NCBI GenBank assembly: GCA_938023415.1 | Contig: CALHEE010000008.1 | Location: forward strand, 1-36,990 | Direction: 5' to 3' | Length of the DNA: 36,990 nt | Source: Minisyncoccota bacterium | GTDB lineage: Bacteria > Patescibacteriota > Minisyncoccia > Minisyncoccales > GBS-2 | Part shown: positions 15,588 through 36,681 of the stretch, in pieces | Numbering within the stretch: position 1 is the first letter of the stretch | Layout: each line of letters opens with the position of its first letter | Notes under the pieces: model-generated | Databases searched by the model: none | The model's input: only the letters and a program-made list of their open reading frames with translations | Told to the model about the DNA's origin: nothing | Translations under genes and position numbers: made by a program

Positions 15588-17681
15588 TTACTCAGGCCAA
15601 TTTTCTATCATTAAGCTTTTCTTTTTACCAAAGATAGGTAACTGGAGATATATTTGTTCAGTAATAAAAGGTATGAATGGGTGCAACAGTTTTAAAGAAG
15701 TGAGCAAAACATAAATTAAGACCTTTTTGGTTGTTTCTCTAGTGGCATTGTCTTTTAACTGAGATTTTGATTTTTCAATGTAAATGTCGCAAAAATCGTG
15801 CCAAAAAAAATTGTATAAGCTTCGGACAGCTCTTCCAAATTGAAAATCTTCCAGAGATTTGTCAACAAAAAGAATGGTTTTTTTGAGAGCTTTAAGAATA
15901 AGTTTGTCTGCTAAAGTGAGTTTAAAAGCTTTGAGTTTGAATTTTCTTGGAATTTTAAATTTTGAATCTTGGACTTGAGGTAAAACGAATCTACTAGCGT
16001 TCCAAATTTTATTGCAAAATTTTTGCCCCATGACAATATTGTCTTCAACAAACTTAATGTCTTGCCCTCCCATCATCTGCCAAACAATCCCCCACCTCGT
16101 GGCATCAGCACCATATTTTTCAATTAATAAGCTAGGGTCAATCCCTGTGCCCAAAGACTTTGACATTCTTTTTCCCTCTTTAGTTAAAACGGTAGGATGA
16201 ATAAAAACTTTTCTAAAAGGAACTTTTTTCAAAAATTCCATTCCTGAAAAAATCATCCGAGCGACCCATAAATTTATAATTCCACGGTCAGTGCTTAAAA
16301 CATCGGTAGGATAAAATCTTCTTAAATCTTTGCTCTTTTTTGGCCAGCCCAAAGCAGCAAAAGGCCACAAGGCGGAAGAAAACCAGGTATCTAAAACTTC
16401 TTCTCTTCCCCTTAAGGGAATTTTGTGTCCCCACCAAATCTGCCTAGAAATGCACCAGTCTTTCCCTGAACTTAGCCAATCAAAATAAATTTTTTCCCAT
16501 CTTTTAGGAATGAATTTTACCATTCCAGAACTCACTGCCTTTTTGGCCATTTGAGCTAAATCTTTCATCTTCAAAAACCATTGTTCAGAAGGCAAAATTT
16601 CAGTGGAAGTTTGACAGCGATAACATTTAGGAATGGATACTTGATAATCTTCTACTTTCACTAAGAGTCCTAATTTTTCTAAATCTTTCACGATCTTTTC
16701 TCTTGCCTCCCAGACCGTCAATCCTTGATAGTCAGCTGGCACCTGAATCATTTTTCCCTCTTTATCGATCACCTCAATAAGAGGAAGATGATGCTTGAGA
16801 GAAATTTCGTAGTCTCTTAAATCATGAGCAGGGGTAATCTTCAATACTCCGGTTCCAAAATCCGGATCAACCGCCGAATCTTCAATTAAAGGAATTTCCC
16901 TTTCGATTAAGGGTAGAGAAAGAAAAATCTTTTTCTTCACCAACTCTTTGTATCTTTTATCTTTTGGGTTGACCGCCAACGCAGTGTCTCCAAAAATTGT
17001 TTCTGGCCTGGTAGTGGCGACAATCAAAAAAGAATTTTCATTTTTCGCAAATGGATACTTAATGTACCATAATTTACCTTCTTCTTTTTTGTACTCAATT
17101 TCCAAATCAGACAAACTCGTTTGGCATCTTGGACACCAGTTAATCGGCCTTTTTCCTTTGTAAATTAAACCCTTTTTGTAATAGTAAAAAAAGGCCTTTT
17201 TTACCGCTTGAGAATATTCTTTGTCTAAAGTAAACCTCGTTCTTGACCAATCTAAAGAGCAACCTAACTTTTTAAATTGCTCCAAAATAATCTTTCTGCA
17301 CTTTTTTACCCATTGCCAGACTCTCTCAATAAATTTTTCTTTTCCTAAATCAAATCTTGTCAGATTCTCTTTTTTCAATTGTTTTTCCACTACATACTGA
17401 GTAGCAATGCCGGCATGATCGGTCCCTGGTAACCAAAGGGTTTTGAATCCTTTCATTCTTTTCCATCTAATTAAAATATCCTGGCAGGTGGCATTGAGGG
17501 CATGACCAATGTGAAGTTCTCCCGTAACATTGGGTGGAGGAATAACGATCGAATAGGGCCTTTTATGTCTTTTTGGCAAATGATCAGGGTTGAATAATTT
17601 ACTTTTTTCCCAAAATTGGTAAATTTTCTTCTCTACCAGCTTGGGATTGTAAACTTTTTCTAAGACCAGTTTTCTTTTCAT
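15588..17681 (-). CDS. valS: Valyl-tRNA synthetase (shortened)
   Basis: PPPNVTGELHIGHALN, GTDHAGIATQ, DVLDTWFSS-like and KMSKSLGTGIDP motifs; editing domain ATTRPETIFGDTA. Confidence 0.96.
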   Translation of the reverse strand: MKRKLVLEKVYNPKLVEKKIYQFWEKSKLFNPDHLPKRHKRPYSIVIPPPNVTGELHIGHALNATCQDILIRWKRMKGFKTLWLPGTDHAGIATQYVVEKQLKKENLTRFDLGKEKFIERVWQWVKKCRKIILEQFKKLGCSLDWSRTRFTLDKEYSQAVKKAFFYYYKKGLIYKGKRPINWCPRCQTSLSDLEIEYKKEEGKLWYIKYPFAKNENSFLIVATTRPETIFGDTALAVNPKDKRYKELVKKKIFLSLPLIEREIPLIEDSAVDPDFGTGVLKITPAHDLRDYEISLKHHLPLIEVIDKEGKMIQVPADYQGLTVWEAREKIVKDLEKLGLLVKVEDYQVSIPKCYRCQTSTEILPSEQWFLKMKDLAQMAKKAVSSGMVKFIPKRWEKIYFDWLSSGKDWCISRQIWWGHKIPLRGREEVLDTWFSSALWPFAALGWPKKSKDLRRFYPTDVLSTDRGIINLWVARMIFSGMEFLKKVPFRKVFIHPTVLTKEGKRMSKSLGTGIDPSLLIEKYGADATRWGIVWQMMGGQDIKFVEDNIVMGQKFCNKIWNASRFVLPQVQDSKFKIPRKFKLKAFKLTLADKLILKALKKTILFVDKSLEDFQFGRAVRSLYNFFWHDFCDIYIEKSKSQLKDNATRETTKKVLIYVLLTSLKLLHPFIPFITEQIYLQLPIFGKKKSLMIENWPE

Positions 17682-17689
17682 ATATTTTC

Positions 17690-17717
17690 ATTATATCTGA
17701 GGGTTGATTTTTTTCAA
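17690..17717 (-). promoter_or_regulatory. Putative valS promoter TTGAAA-16-TATAAT, -10 ends 8 nt before ATG
   Basis: TATAAT at 17690-17695 on minus strand; ATG at 17681. Confidence 0.6.
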
Positions 17718-17731
17718 ATTTTTCCTAAAAT
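17704..17731 (+). promoter_or_regulatory. Putative promoter TTGATT-16-TAAAAT for tRNA-Glu / GT2 transcript
   Basis: TTGATT 17704-17709, TAAAAT 17726-17731, tRNA starts 17743. Confidence 0.5.
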
Positions 17732-17742
17732 AATATTGATTT

Positions 17743-17814
17743 GCCGCCATCGTCTAACGGTTAGGACATCGGGCTTTCAATCCGAAAATCGGAGTTCAAC
17801 TCTCCGTGGCGGCA
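17743..17814 (+). tRNA. tRNA-Glu (anticodon TTC)
   Basis: Acceptor GCCGCCA/TGGCGGC; anticodon stem-loop TCGGG-CTTTCAA-TCCGA. Confidence 0.94.
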
Positions 17815-17815
17815 C

Positions 17816-19360
17816 ATGAAATCAGATTATCTTAACCTCTCTTCCCCTGAAGACTTAATCAATAAAAAAGAAAAAATTTTTTACCGAATCCTGGAAATTC
17901 TTCCAGGATTTTTATCATGGCTTACTCTTTTGAGTTTTTTTGTTTTATCTTGGTCCGCCCCAAAAGTGGTGGCTGTTTTTATTATCATTTTCGATCTCTA
18001 TTGGTTAATGAGGGTGGCTTATTTGTCCGTTCACCAAATTGCTTGTTTTTTGCAAATGAGAAAACACTTAAAGATTGATTGGCTGGAAAAGCTTAAAAAT
18101 TTAAATAGTCTTTCCAAGAAAAATTGGCAAGAGATTTACCATTTAATCGTTTTGCCAATGGCCAACGAAGACTTAGAAATCGTAAAGAGTAGCCTTGAGG
18201 CTCTTTTAGAATGCAATTATCCAAAAGAGAAAATGATGGTTGTGCTGGCCATTGAAGAAAGAATAGGTAAAAAAGCTCAAGAGATAGCCAAAATAATTGA
18301 AAAAGAGTTCGGAAAAAAATTTTTCAAATTTTTCATCACGCGCCATCCAAAAGATATTAAAGGAGAAGTAAAAGGCCGTGGCTCAAATGTTGCCTGGGCA
18401 ATAAAAGAGGTAAAAAAGAAACTACCTAAGGAAATCCCCCTCGACAAAGTCATCGTTTCCATTTTTGATATTGACACCAGACCGTTTCCCCAATATTTTG
18501 CCGTGCTCACTTATTATTATCTGACAACAAAAAACAATTTGAGAGCAAGCTATCAGCCGATTCCTGTCTACAACAATAACATCTGGGAAGCTCCGGTTTT
18601 TTCTCGAATTGTCGCCACCTCCAATACCTTCTGGCAGATGATGCAACAGGAAAGAAAAGAACAATTGGTAACTTATTCTTCTCACTCCATGCCCTTGAAA
18701 ACTTTATTAGAAGTGGGCTATCCTGCGAATGTCGTTTCTGACGATTCGCGCATTTTTTGGAAGGCCTATCTTTTTTACAATGGCAAATATCAGGTCATTC
18801 CTCTATATTATCCAATTTCCATGGATGCAGTTTTGGCAAAAAATTTCTTCCAAACGGTGATCAATCAATACAAACAACAAAAGCGTTGGGCTTTTGGAGC
18901 AGAAAACATTCCTTACATTATCTTTGGCTTTTTTAAAAACAAAAAAATTCCATTTTTTGAGAAGGTGCGCCATACCTTCATTATTTTAGAAGGATTTTGG
19001 TCTTGGGCGACAGCTGCCCTTTTAATTTTCTTTTTGGGTTGGCTACCTTTATTGTTAGGAGGTGAAAAATTCAATTTTACCCTTCTTTCTTATAATTTAC
19101 CCAGGTTAACTTCCAATCTGATGGCACTGGCCATGCATGGGATGATGATCGCTGCCCTTATTTCTCTTTTACTTTTGCCCCCTCGACCAAAAAATTATTC
19201 AAAATTAAAAACCTTCTCTATCTTCTTTCAATGGCTTCTTTTACCGCTTACTTTAATTTTCTTTGGGGCTCTCCCTGCTTTAGATGCTCAAACAAGATTA
19301 ATGTTGGGTAAAAGATTGGAGTTTTGGGTGACGGAGAAAAAGAGAAAATTGAAAGATTAA
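17816..19360 (+). CDS. Membrane glycosyltransferase family 2 protein
   Basis: FDIDTRPFPQYF, VSDDSRIFW, QQKRWAFG (Q..RW) motifs and C-terminal TMs. Confidence 0.85.
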   Translation: MKSDYLNLSSPEDLINKKEKIFYRILEILPGFLSWLTLLSFFVLSWSAPKVVAVFIIIFDLYWLMRVAYLSVHQIACFLQMRKHLKIDWLEKLKNLNSLSKKNWQEIYHLIVLPMANEDLEIVKSSLEALLECNYPKEKMMVVLAIEERIGKKAQEIAKIIEKEFGKKFFKFFITRHPKDIKGEVKGRGSNVAWAIKEVKKKLPKEIPLDKVIVSIFDIDTRPFPQYFAVLTYYYLTTKNNLRASYQPIPVYNNNIWEAPVFSRIVATSNTFWQMMQQERKEQLVTYSSHSMPLKTLLEVGYPANVVSDDSRIFWKAYLFYNGKYQVIPLYYPISMDAVLAKNFFQTVINQYKQQKRWAFGAENIPYIIFGFFKNKKIPFFEKVRHTFIILEGFWSWATAALLIFFLGWLPLLLGGEKFNFTLLSYNLPRLTSNLMALAMHGMMIAALISLLLLPPRPKNYSKLKTFSIFFQWLLLPLTLIFFGALPALDAQTRLMLGKRLEFWVTEKKRKLKD

Positions 19361-19363
19361 TTT

Positions 19364-21478
19364 TTACTCCAGATGGACTCTCTTTTTAAATTCAGCCAAT
19401 TTTTTTCTTAAAAGGGGGTATTTTTTTAACTCTGGATCTTTTTCTAAAATCTCCTTGGCTGAATTTCTCGCCTTCTCTACAAGAGAAACATCTTTCAAAG
19501 ACTCCATGGCAATGTCTGGGAGGCCCCATTGTTTTGCCCCAAAAATTTCTCCAGGTCCTCTCATTTCTAAATCTTTCTCAGCTAATTCAAAACCATTTTC
19601 GCAAGTTAAAAGAGCTTCTAGCCTTTGACGAGTTTTCTTTGAAGAAGATTCCGTAAAAAGAAAACAAAAGGATTGTTTTTCTCCTCTCCCTACTCTCCCC
19701 CGAAATTGATGAAGCTGGGCTAAGCCAAATCTCTCTGCCCCCTCAATCATGATAATAGTAGCGTTGGGAATATCAATGCCCACCTCTACCACCGAAGTAG
19801 AGACTAAAATATCGATTTTTTTTTCCTTGAAATCTTTCATTATTTTTTCTTTTTCTTTTGCCTTCATCCGGCCGTGAAGCATAGCCACTTTCAAATCAGG
19901 AAAGATCACTTTTGAAAGTTTCTCATATTCTTCTTTTACTGCTTTCACTTCAGACAAGTTTAAATTTTCATTTTCTCTTTTCTCAATTCGGGGACAAATG
20001 ACAAAAACCTGGTTTTTCGCCTTCACTTGCTCTCTAATAAAATCGTAGGCCAGTTTTCTTTTTTCAGGGGGAATAATTTTCGTCACCACCTTCTTTCTGC
20101 CTTTTGGTAATTGATCAAGGAGAGAGAGGTCAAGGTCGCCATAAAGAGCAAGAGCAAGGGTCCGAGGGATGGGAGTAGCGGTCATTGAAAGAAGATGGGG
20201 AAGAAAAGGCTGTTCTTGTCTCTTCACTAATCTTGCCCGCTGTTCCACTCCAAAGCGATGTTGCTCGTCTAAAATCACTAAGGCTAAATTTTTAAATTCC
20301 ACTTCTTTTTGAATGAGGGCATGGGTACCAATCAAAAAATCAATTTCTCCATTTTTGATTTTCTGTAAAAATTTTTTTCTTGAAATTTGAGAAATCTTTT
20401 GTTCACCAAAAACCAAACTTTCTTCTCTTGTTAAAAGGCCAATTTTTACTTGGAAATTTCTTAAAAAATAAGAACTGGTCTTAAAATGTTGCCTGGCTAA
20501 GATTTCGGTAGGTGCCATCAGGGCAATTTGATAACCTGCCCTAGCCACATTCAAAGCAGCAATGAGGGCGACGATAGTTTTCCCTGAACCAACATCTCCC
20601 TCTAATAAGCGGTTCATTGGTCTTGGTTTTTCTAAATCCTTTAAAATTTGAAAGAGAGATCTTTTTTGGGCCAAGGTCAACTCAAAAGGTAAGGAGTTAA
20701 TAAAGTTTTTTACCAATTCTAAATTGAGAGGAATGGAAACTGCCCTTTCTCTTTTCAGGGCCAGTCTTTCTCTTAAAATATAAAGCTGAAGCAAAAACAA
20801 TTCTTCGAAAGAAAATCTTTCTTTTGCTTTTTGAGCAGAATTTAAAGAATCTGGAAAATGAACCTGCCAAAGAGCCTCTTTAAGAGGAAAGAGGTTGAAT
20901 TTCTTGATGATCTCTCCAGGGATAAAATCTCTGAGCTTATTTTCGATTTTAATTAAAATTTTCTGGATGATTTTTCTTAACCAACGGGAAGAAAGTCTTT
21001 CTGTCTCTGGATAAATTGCCACTAACCTTCCGGTGTGGATGAGATTGGAAGTATCAAGTTCAGAATGAGAAATTTTTTCGTAAGCAGGATTGGACAAATA
21101 TAAGCCGTATTCATCGAAAGTCACCTTTCCCGACAAAGAGATGAAATTTCCTTTTTTTAAAACATTCACCAAATAAGGTTGATTGAACCAAACTATTTTT
21201 ATTGACCCGGAATTATCTGCCACTATTGCTTGAGTTAAAATCATTTTCTTTTTCCAGGTTTGAGTATTTGTGATTTCTAGAATCTTTCCCTGAAGGCTCA
21301 CTTTTTCTCCCACTTTTACTTGAGCAATCTTTTTTAAATTGGAAAAATCCTCATAACGATGAGGAAAATGATAAAGAAGATCGCGGACGGTTTTAATGCC
21401 CAACTTTTTTAATCTCTTCTGATAGATAGGTCCTATTTTGGGAATTTCTTTAATGGGGGTAGAGAGTTCAATTTTCAT
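19364..21478 (-). CDS. recG: ATP-dependent DNA helicase RecG
   Basis: Wedge domain; LLEGDVGSGKT, DEQHRFGVEQR, SMTATPIPRTL, QFRGRVGRG motifs. Confidence 0.96.
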   Translation of the reverse strand: MKIELSTPIKEIPKIGPIYQKRLKKLGIKTVRDLLYHFPHRYEDFSNLKKIAQVKVGEKVSLQGKILEITNTQTWKKKMILTQAIVADNSGSIKIVWFNQPYLVNVLKKGNFISLSGKVTFDEYGLYLSNPAYEKISHSELDTSNLIHTGRLVAIYPETERLSSRWLRKIIQKILIKIENKLRDFIPGEIIKKFNLFPLKEALWQVHFPDSLNSAQKAKERFSFEELFLLQLYILRERLALKRERAVSIPLNLELVKNFINSLPFELTLAQKRSLFQILKDLEKPRPMNRLLEGDVGSGKTIVALIAALNVARAGYQIALMAPTEILARQHFKTSSYFLRNFQVKIGLLTREESLVFGEQKISQISRKKFLQKIKNGEIDFLIGTHALIQKEVEFKNLALVILDEQHRFGVEQRARLVKRQEQPFLPHLLSMTATPIPRTLALALYGDLDLSLLDQLPKGRKKVVTKIIPPEKRKLAYDFIREQVKAKNQVFVICPRIEKRENENLNLSEVKAVKEEYEKLSKVIFPDLKVAMLHGRMKAKEKEKIMKDFKEKKIDILVSTSVVEVGIDIPNATIIMIEGAERFGLAQLHQFRGRVGRGEKQSFCFLFTESSSKKTRQRLEALLTCENGFELAEKDLEMRGPGEIFGAKQWGLPDIAMESLKDVSLVEKARNSAKEILEKDPELKKYPLLRKKLAEFKKRVHLE

Positions 21479-21479
21479 A

Positions 21480-21552
21480 TGCCCTCGGTAGGAATCGAAC
21501 CTACAATCTCAGGGTCCGCAACCCTGAATTTTATCCATTAAACTACGAGGGC
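21480..21552 (-). tRNA. tRNA-Arg (anticodon GCG)
   Basis: Acceptor GCCCTCG/CGAGGGC; anticodon stem-loop CAGGG-TTGCGGA-CCCTG; T arm GTAGG-TTCGATT-CCTAC. Confidence 0.9.
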
Positions 21553-35217: not shown

Positions 35218-36681
35218 ATGAAGATTCCAAATGAAGTAAAAAATATCATTGAAAAATTAAAAGAAGCTGGCTTTGAGGGTTTTATTGTCGGGGGATGTGT
35301 GAGAGATCTTTTAAGAAAGAAAGAGCCTGAAGACTGGGATATTGCCACTAATGCTAAACCCTTAGATATTCAAAGAATTTTTCCAAAAAGCTATTATTCA
35401 AATCAATTTTTCACTGTCACCGTTTTGACGGAAAGCGATGACCCGAGATTGAAAGAAATTGAAATTACCACCTTTCGAAAAGAAGCAAAATATACAGATA
35501 AAAGACATCCAGATGAAGTAAAGTTTGCCGAAAATTTAAGGGAAGACTTAGCGAGAAGAGACTTCACCATTAATGCCATGGCCATAGAACTCAAGGAAGA
35601 AAAAGAAAAAATTATTGATCCTTTTGGAGGGAAAAAAGATTTAGAAAAGAAAATTATAAGAACGGTGGGCGAAGCCAAAAAGCGATTTAATGAAGATGCC
35701 TTAAGAATGTTAAGAGCGATAAGGTTTGCGGTCAGTTTAGGAGAAAACTGGAAAATTGAGGAGAAAACAGCTCAAGCGATCAAAGAAAATTCCTTTTGGA
35801 TTTCTGCTATTTCCAAAGAAAGAATCAGAGAAGAATTAATGAAGATTATAATGTCAGAAAGAGCAGCCGAGGGTATTGAACTCTTAAGAACTTTTGGTCT
35901 TTTAAAATATATCATTCCGGAATTAGAAGAAGGTTATAAGGTAACCCAAAACAAACATCACATTTACGATTGTTATGAACATTCTTTAAGGTCTTTAGAT
36001 TATGCAGCAAAAAGAGGATTTAATAAATTTGTCAGACTGGCAGCTTTACTTCACGATATCGCCAAACCAAGAACAAAAAAAGGAGAAGGTCCCGACGCTA
36101 CTTTTTACGGTCATGAAGTCTTAGGAGCAAAAATGACAGCAGAAATTCTCAATCGACTGAAATTTCCTAAAAAAGAGATTGAGAAAATTGTGAAATTAGT
36201 AAGGTATCATCTCTTTTACTACAATGTGGGAGAAGTAAGCGAGTCAGCGGTAAGGAGACTTTTAAGGAAAGTGGGGAAAGAAAATATTGAAGAATTATTA
36301 CAGGTAAGAATGGCAGACAGAATTGGTTCTGGGGTGCCAAAGGCAGAACCTTATAAATTAAGACATTTAAGATATCTCATTGAAAAAGTAAGCCAAGATC
36401 CCATTTCCGTAAAGATGCTCAAAGTTAATGGATACGATGTCATGCGAATCCTAAAAATTAAGCCAGGACCGAAAGTGGGAGAGGTTTTAGATATTTTGCT
36501 AGGAGAAGTCTTAGAAGATCCGAAAAAAAATGAAAAAGAATTTTTAGAAAAAGAGATTGAAAGATTAGGAAAATTGGAAGATGAAGAGTTAAAAAGATTA
36601 GCTCAAAAAGCTCGCCAAGAAAGAGAAAGATTAGAAATGAAAAGAGATGAGATGACAAAGAGAAAGTATTGGGTAATATAA
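35218..36681 (+). CDS. CCA tRNA nucleotidyltransferase / polyA polymerase family with HD domain
   Basis: FIVGGCVRDLLRKKEPEDWDIATNA, RRDFTINAMA, LAALLHDIAKP HD motif. Confidence 0.94.
   Translation: MKIPNEVKNIIEKLKEAGFEGFIVGGCVRDLLRKKEPEDWDIATNAKPLDIQRIFPKSYYSNQFFTVTVLTESDDPRLKEIEITTFRKEAKYTDKRHPDEVKFAENLREDLARRDFTINAMAIELKEEKEKIIDPFGGKKDLEKKIIRTVGEAKKRFNEDALRMLRAIRFAVSLGENWKIEEKTAQAIKENSFWISAISKERIREELMKIIMSERAAEGIELLRTFGLLKYIIPELEEGYKVTQNKHHIYDCYEHSLRSLDYAAKRGFNKFVRLAALLHDIAKPRTKKGEGPDATFYGHEVLGAKMTAEILNRLKFPKKEIEKIVKLVRYHLFYYNVGEVSESAVRRLLRKVGKENIEELLQVRMADRIGSGVPKAEPYKLRHLRYLIEKVSQDPISVKMLKVNGYDVMRILKIKPGPKVGEVLDILLGEVLEDPKKNEKEFLEKEIERLGKLEDEELKRLAQKARQERERLEMKRDEMTKRKYWVI

What the first reader, a model, noticed from the sequence alone, without database searches (positions are those of the whole stretch)
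17743..17820. tRNA-Glu discriminator base lies 1 nt before the GT2 start codon: tRNA processing may generate a near-leaderless mRNA
Seen: the tRNA acceptor ends TGGCGGC-A at 17814, then one C, then ATG at 17816. No conventional promoter, leader or SD fits between them. Established: RNase Z (or exonucleolytic trimming plus the CCA enzyme) cuts CCA-less tRNA precursors just after the discriminator. Inference: the GT2 mRNA depends on tRNA-Glu transcription and is released as 5'-C-AUG by tRNA maturation, unless a promoter lies inside the tRNA gene.
Basis: partly seen in the sequence, partly recalled or inferred. Interest (0 to 1): 0.72.

Follow-up and report, generated by a model that had tools for sequence, protein, structure and literature searches.

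The report
tRNA gene abutting a leaderless-type gene
In this ultrasmall bacterium a tRNA gene ends one letter before the start codon of a sugar-transferase gene, an arrangement that recurs in many relatives, so the messenger RNA is probably cut free by tRNA maturation as in mitochondria, yet the usual enzyme for that cut appears to be missing.

Summary
tRNA-Glu(UUC) spans 17743-17814 and its discriminator is A17814. One C follows, and ATG 17816 opens a 514-aa membrane glycosyltransferase with a GT2-like fold. Homology fixes that start codon. RecG follows tRNA-Arg in the same way in this window. In about 100 homologous loci tRNA-Glu lies within 400 nt upstream in 46, at gap 1 in 11 and gap 2 in 4. 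Operon-first genes in four genomes, and glycosyltransferase orthologues without a nearby tRNA, carry -10 boxes 11-15 nt before ATG. Shine-Dalgarno motifs are near background. Leaderless initiation therefore looks normal in this order of Patescibacteria. The abutting loci have no -10 box inside the tRNA; a promoter-like site lies upstream of it.

First, short tRNA-to-ORF spacing (12/44 at 1-3 nt) matches ordinary protein-to-protein spacing here (164/681), so compaction explains it. Second, RNase Z, the proposed nuclease, was not found over cut-off in any of 60 genomes. RNase R/II and E/G are also undetected in this genome.

Best reading: a tRNA-mRNA co-transcript whose 3' tRNA cut yields a near-leaderless mRNA. 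The enzyme is unknown and no RNA data exist.

The parts
17704..17731 (+). promoter-like site (TTGATT-16-TAAAAT) just upstream of tRNA-Glu, the presumed promoter of tRNA and downstream gene
   Evidence: consensus scan; TANNNT boxes are enriched at -20..-11 before tRNA-Glu in 29 linked loci
17743..17814 (+). tRNA-Glu(UUC), no encoded CCA, discriminator A17814
   Evidence: Rfam RF00005 65.5 bits; ARAGORN
17815..17815 (+). single C between discriminator and start codon (would be C74 of a partial CCA)
   Evidence: sequence; +1 is C in 84% of CCA-less tRNAs in four genomes
17816..19360 (+). 514-aa membrane glycosyltransferase, GT2-like fold, start codon ATG 17816
   Evidence: ORF; AlphaFold model pLDDT 83.7 matching cellulose/hyaluronan synthases; conserved N terminus; Pfam finds no significant match
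17690..17717 (-). divergent promoter-like site TTGAAA-16-TATAAT; its -10 box begins 14 nt before the LeuRS ATG at 17681, so LeuRS looks leaderless
   Evidence: consensus scan, 11 of 12 matches
15588..17681 (-). leucyl-tRNA synthetase, divergent neighbour
   Evidence: Pfam tRNA-synt_1 4.4e-125
21480..21552 (-). tRNA-Arg(GCG); discriminator A21480, then one T (21479)
   Evidence: Rfam RF00005 69.5 bits; sequence
19364..21478 (-). RecG helicase, ATG at 21478-21476, one base after tRNA-Arg: second case in the same window
   Evidence: NCBIfam RecG 2.7e-262; gap 1
35218..36681 (+). CCA-adding enzyme / poly(A) polymerase-type nucleotidyltransferase, needed for CCA-less tRNAs
   Evidence: Pfam PF01743 1.7e-37, PF12627, PF13735

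Best explanation
tRNA-Glu and the glycosyltransferase form one transcription unit driven by the promoter in front of the tRNA. Cutting at the 3' end of the tRNA, after the discriminator or after the following C, releases an mRNA that begins with C-AUG or AUG. The lineage's leaderless-competent ribosomes then translate it. This works like mitochondrial tRNA punctuation. Shown: the anatomy, its recurrence, the start codon, the lack of a promoter or Shine-Dalgarno site in between, and -10 boxes close to ATG across the lineage. Inferred: co-transcription, the cut, and leaderless translation. The cutting enzyme is unknown and is probably not a canonical RNase Z.
For: Abutment with a homology-fixed start. 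Gap 1-2 in 15 of 46 tRNA-Glu-linked loci, none at 0 or 3-5. In the window's clade of 22 rows: 11 at gap 1-2, none at 3-30, 7 above 30 and 4 without a tRNA. GT2 gaps favour 1-2 over 3-10 more than protein pairs do (15:7 against 112:230, p 0.002, not corrected for relatedness). No -10 box within the tRNA in gap 1-2 loci (0/15), but 28/68 orthologues without a close tRNA have one at -15..-11 against about 11 elsewhere. Genome-wide -10 peak at -15..-12 in four genomes (48/166, 75/245, 48/251, 33/135; control means 17.6, 29.8, 13.6, 11.1) with Shine-Dalgarno near background. Further cases: RecG, rpmG, RNase J. YchF, reported to promote leaderless translation (cited in PMC12641178), is present. Precedent: Propionibacterium acnes lacks an obvious RNase Z, is cut endonucleolytically near tRNA 3' ends, and has many leaderless mRNAs (PMC3848588).
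Against: No RNA data. No RNase Z found in the order over cut-off, nor RNase R/II or E/G in this genome, so the required endonuclease is unidentified. Short spacing is no more frequent than between ordinary co-oriented genes. Gap 1 is partly favoured by the C-A tail of tRNAs. In some relatives the spacer is 6-330 nt with the gene intact, so the arrangement is not obligatory.
Confidence: 0.55

Rival explanations
1. Plain compaction with no special processing: intergenic DNA has eroded to the minimum, as between any two genes here. The gene is translated from the tRNA-mRNA precursor before maturation, and each transcript ends up either as mRNA or as tRNA.
For: tRNA-to-ORF spacing equals protein-to-protein spacing. 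No RNase Z, RNB or RNase E/G found in this genome. PNPase is the 3' exonuclease found, so trimming would consume the mRNA.
Against: A folded acceptor stem one base before AUG (predicted fold) should block a ribosome from placing AUG in its P site (inference). In the window's clade gaps are either 1-2 or above 30 nt, not graded.
Confidence: 0.2
2. The enzyme is exonucleolytic only: endonucleases (RNase Y or J) cut within the ORF and PNPase trims back to the tRNA, so maturation of tRNA-Glu destroys the mRNA and expression comes from rare unprocessed transcripts.
For: RNase J, RNase Y, RNase III and PNPase are present. RNase Z was not found over cut-off in the order.
Against: It would make conserved, widespread genes (glycosyltransferase, RecG, rpmG) depend on failed tRNA maturation. 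Full-length ORFs are kept in many genera.
Confidence: 0.12
3. An independent promoter inside the tRNA gene transcribes the downstream gene.
For: Internal promoters cannot be excluded by sequence alone; promoters that depart from consensus exist.
Against: No TANNNT box between about -40 and -11 in 15 gap 1-2 loci, and only one at -10. GC-rich, constrained tRNA sequence leaves no -10 box at leaderless distance.
Confidence: 0.07
4. The start codon is misplaced and a real start lies downstream.
For: None found beyond the general weakness of computed starts.
Against: Homologues in many genera align from residue 1-5, with M1 invariant in 14 aligned sequences. No alternative ATG/GTG/TTG within 36 nt.
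Confidence: 0.03

Closest known systems
tRNA punctuation in animal mitochondria (RNase P and RNase Z release the mRNAs; PMC4394434)
   Same: tRNA abuts the ORF with almost no leader; the cut that matures the tRNA would define the mRNA 5' end; the mRNA would be leaderless.
   Different: tRNA genes here mostly have promoter-like sites just upstream instead of one genome-long transcript; only some genes are involved; RNase Z was not found.
Leaderless mRNAs of actinobacteria and other bacteria (for example PMC4681348, PMC3848588)
   Same: Start codon at or within a few bases of the 5' end, no Shine-Dalgarno; -10 box 11-15 nt before ATG in this lineage's other genes.
   Different: Those 5' ends are made by transcription start; here the end would be made by RNA processing (5'-monophosphate).
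Bacterial tRNA-mRNA operons such as the E. coli tRNA-tufB operon (from general knowledge)
   Same: tRNA and protein gene co-transcribed from a tRNA promoter.
   Different: There a leader with a ribosome-binding site separates tRNA and ORF (general knowledge); here there is one base.
RNase-Z-less tRNA 3' processing in Propionibacterium acnes (PMC3848588)
   Same: No obvious RNase Z, yet endonucleolytic ends near tRNA 3' ends, even inside CCA; leaderless mRNAs common.
   Different: There most tRNAs are transcribed alone and the downstream fragments were not described as mRNAs in the section read.

Membership tests
tRNA punctuation (mitochondrial type) | tRNA gene directly delimits the ORF | tested here: met
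   gap 1 at tRNA-Glu/glycosyltransferase and tRNA-Arg/RecG; recurs in relatives
tRNA punctuation (mitochondrial type) | tRNA and mRNA on one primary transcript | tested here: inconclusive
   no promoter or terminator fits between them; no RNA data
tRNA punctuation (mitochondrial type) | 3' cut by RNase Z | tested here: not met
   TIGR02651: 0 of 60 genomes over cut-off, 14 of 14 controls found; own best hit is GloB-like
tRNA punctuation (mitochondrial type) | mRNA with a processed 5' end used for translation | not testable with these tools
   needs 5'-end mapping and ribosome profiling
leaderless mRNA | mRNA 5' end within about 0-8 nt of the start codon | not testable with these tools
   implied only if the tRNA is excised at its 3' end
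leaderless mRNA | lineage shows -10 boxes 11-15 nt before start codons and little Shine-Dalgarno | tested here: met
glycosyltransferase family 2 (processive, membrane) | GT-A fold with transmembrane helices like cellulose or hyaluronan synthase | tested here: met
   AlphaFold pLDDT 83.7; Foldseek best hits BcsA 4.7e-10 and hyaluronan synthase 2.9e-9
glycosyltransferase family 2 (processive, membrane) | sequence match to a GT2 profile | tested here: not met
   no Pfam family at 0.001; best PF13632 at E 3.5; DxD and QxxRW-type motifs are invariant in the alignment

The most novel reading that the evidence does not exclude
An order of Patescibacteria uses tRNA 3'-end cutting by an unidentified endonuclease other than canonical RNase Z, acting at or just after N73-C74, as a regular way of making leaderless mRNAs: a bacterial counterpart of mitochondrial tRNA punctuation.
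Probability: 0.35. Interest if true: 0.75.

Novelty: new variant of a known kind. Interest (0 to 1): 0.5.

Why it matters
If true, bacteria as well as organelles can let tRNA maturation define mRNA 5' ends, which ties protein output to tRNA synthesis and removes the need for a leader. It also poses a sharp question: which enzyme frees tRNA 3' ends in a lineage with no detectable RNase Z, RNase R/II or RNase E/G in the genome examined, where CCA-less tRNA genes keep a C at position 74?

Tried and rejected
Promoter inside the tRNA: no -10 box at leaderless distance in 15 gap 1-2 loci. Start further downstream: rejected by homology. Spacing as proof of a special mechanism: rejected, because protein-to-protein spacing is equally short. 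Pairing of the 5' leader with the ORF start, suggested by the fold: not significant across 15 loci (p 0.11). Phylum-wide gap 1-2 counts are confounded by encoded CCA, whose A doubles as the A of ATG; the gap 4-5 run was also dominated by CCA tails. RNase Z candidates in this genome: the 183-aa MBL protein is GloB-like, the 217-aa one is a PRK00685-type hydrolase, the 573-aa one is RNase J. Literature searches found no report of tRNA-derived leaderless mRNAs in bacteria, but only open-access papers are held.

Full report
Observation. The Rfam tRNA model ends exactly at A17814; C17815 follows and ATG 17816 opens a 514-aa ORF. The same frame holds no start codon inside the tRNA. The same arrangement occurs on the other strand of the window: tRNA-Arg(GCG), one T, then the ATG of RecG at 21478.

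The gene. Pfam finds no significant family, but the AlphaFold model (mean pLDDT 83.7) matches membrane glycosyltransferases of the cellulose/hyaluronan synthase type. It is found in 77 of 95 good genomes of the order. M1 is invariant in 14 aligned homologues.

Relatives. In about 100 homologous loci tRNA-Glu(UUC) lies co-oriented within 400 nt upstream in 46. Gaps: 1 (eleven), 2 (four), none at 0 or 3-5, then scattered up to 327. Four loci of Giovannonibacteria/Ryanbacteria have tRNA-Ile(UAU) there instead, at gaps 5-29. On the tree gap 1-2 needs 9 changes (at least 6 forced by starred branches). In the window's own clade of 22 rows the state is either 1-2 (11 rows) or above 30/no tRNA (11 rows), with nothing between.

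Spacing statistics. In four genomes (619 kb own, 660, 540 and 400 kb of others) 159 tRNAs were found. Forty-four have an ATG-started ORF of at least 50 aa within 60 nt, at gaps 1 (five), 2 (five), 3 (two), 0 (none). This exceeds a uniform null (p about 1e-6), but co-oriented protein genes in the same genomes are spaced just as tightly (164 of 681 at 1-3 nt; Fisher p 0.59). A pattern survey of 119 genomes of the order gave about 10 tRNA-arm-to-ATG matches per genome against well under one for the reversed control. Gaps 1 and 2 stand out among the 131 matches that were listed (18 and 17 against about 5 per position beyond gap 3), though these include chance ATGs and C-A tails. So the anatomy is real and recurrent, but short spacing alone is explained by compaction.

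Initiation mode. Operon-first genes in all four genomes have an excess of -10-like boxes starting 12-15 nt before ATG (48/166, 75/245, 48/251, 33/135 against control-window means of 17.6, 29.8, 13.6, 11.1), and Shine-Dalgarno motifs are near background (first seen). Glycosyltransferase orthologues without a close tRNA show the same box (28 of 68 against about 11). The divergent LeuRS gene in the same 61-bp intergenic region has TATAAT beginning 14 nt before its ATG. By contrast, none of the 15 gap 1-2 loci has such a box, and -10-like boxes are enriched upstream of the tRNA instead. Leaderless translation thus looks like a standard mode here, and for the abutting genes the 5' end must come from somewhere other than a promoter at the ATG.

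Processing. In this genome (96.7% complete) RNase R/II and RNase E/G were not found either; RNase R/II was over cut-off in only 4 of 60 genomes of the order. PNPase, RNase J, RNase Y and RNase III are present, and a CCA-adding enzyme lies in the window. CCA-less tRNA genes keep C at +1 in 84% of 115 cases, against 18% background. That would fit a cut after C74, which at gap 1 leaves exactly 5'-AUG; this step is inference. Propionibacterium acnes is a precedent for endonucleolytic tRNA 3' ends without an obvious RNase Z (PMC3848588).

Verdict. The best reading is a tRNA-mRNA co-transcript from which a 3' tRNA cut frees a near-leaderless mRNA, working like mitochondrial tRNA punctuation (PMC4394434) but failing its RNase Z criterion. 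Co-transcription, the cut and translation of the product are inferred. No held paper that the searches returned describes this in bacteria. Limits: gene calls were made by simple ORF rules, related sequences are not independent, three comparison genomes are partial, absence is by profile only, and no RNA data were available.

Noticed in passing
four genomes, 115 CCA-less tRNAs: The base after the discriminator is C in 84% (30/30 and 22/22 in two genomes) although the full CCA is not encoded; +2 is A in 61%.
   Followed up: partly
window 17743-21552 and G002, G016, G037, G051, G056 and others: Conserved block: the glycosyltransferase and RecG lie tail to tail, in the window and G002 each preceded by a tRNA (tRNA-Glu and tRNA-Arg in the window).
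   Followed up: partly
G000:C13 (gap 42), L167, L170, L183: The RNase J gene itself follows a tRNA gene (tRNA-Leu(CAG) here, gap 42), with gaps of 2-3 nt to an RNase J-like N terminus in three other genomes.
   Followed up: no
L006, L128, L026, L267 spacers: Where the spacer between tRNA-Glu and the glycosyltransferase is long, it often ends in or contains a second tRNA-like 3' half (for example GATTCCCGTTGTGGCCAC-GTG), as if DNA had been inserted at the tRNA 3' end with duplication.
   Followed up: no
L017 spacer of 327 nt: The spacer holds a small ORF whose reading (YIGYTTDLKRRLLEHNNG) resembles GIY-YIG nucleases, inserted between tRNA and glycosyltransferase.
   Followed up: no
other Patescibacteria classes; G090 tRNA-Ile and tRNA-Val, G113 tRNA-Val: Encoded CCA often overlaps the start codon as NCCATG, the A serving both; partly chance, but in some cases it opens a real ORF, so tRNA and mRNA would compete for that base.
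   Followed up: partly
window 1-36990: 17 tRNA genes lie in 37 kb of a 619-kb genome that has 46 in all.
   Followed up: no
window 17690-17717, minus strand: LeuRS has an almost consensus promoter whose -10 box begins 14 nt before its ATG, a likely leaderless mRNA.
   Followed up: partly
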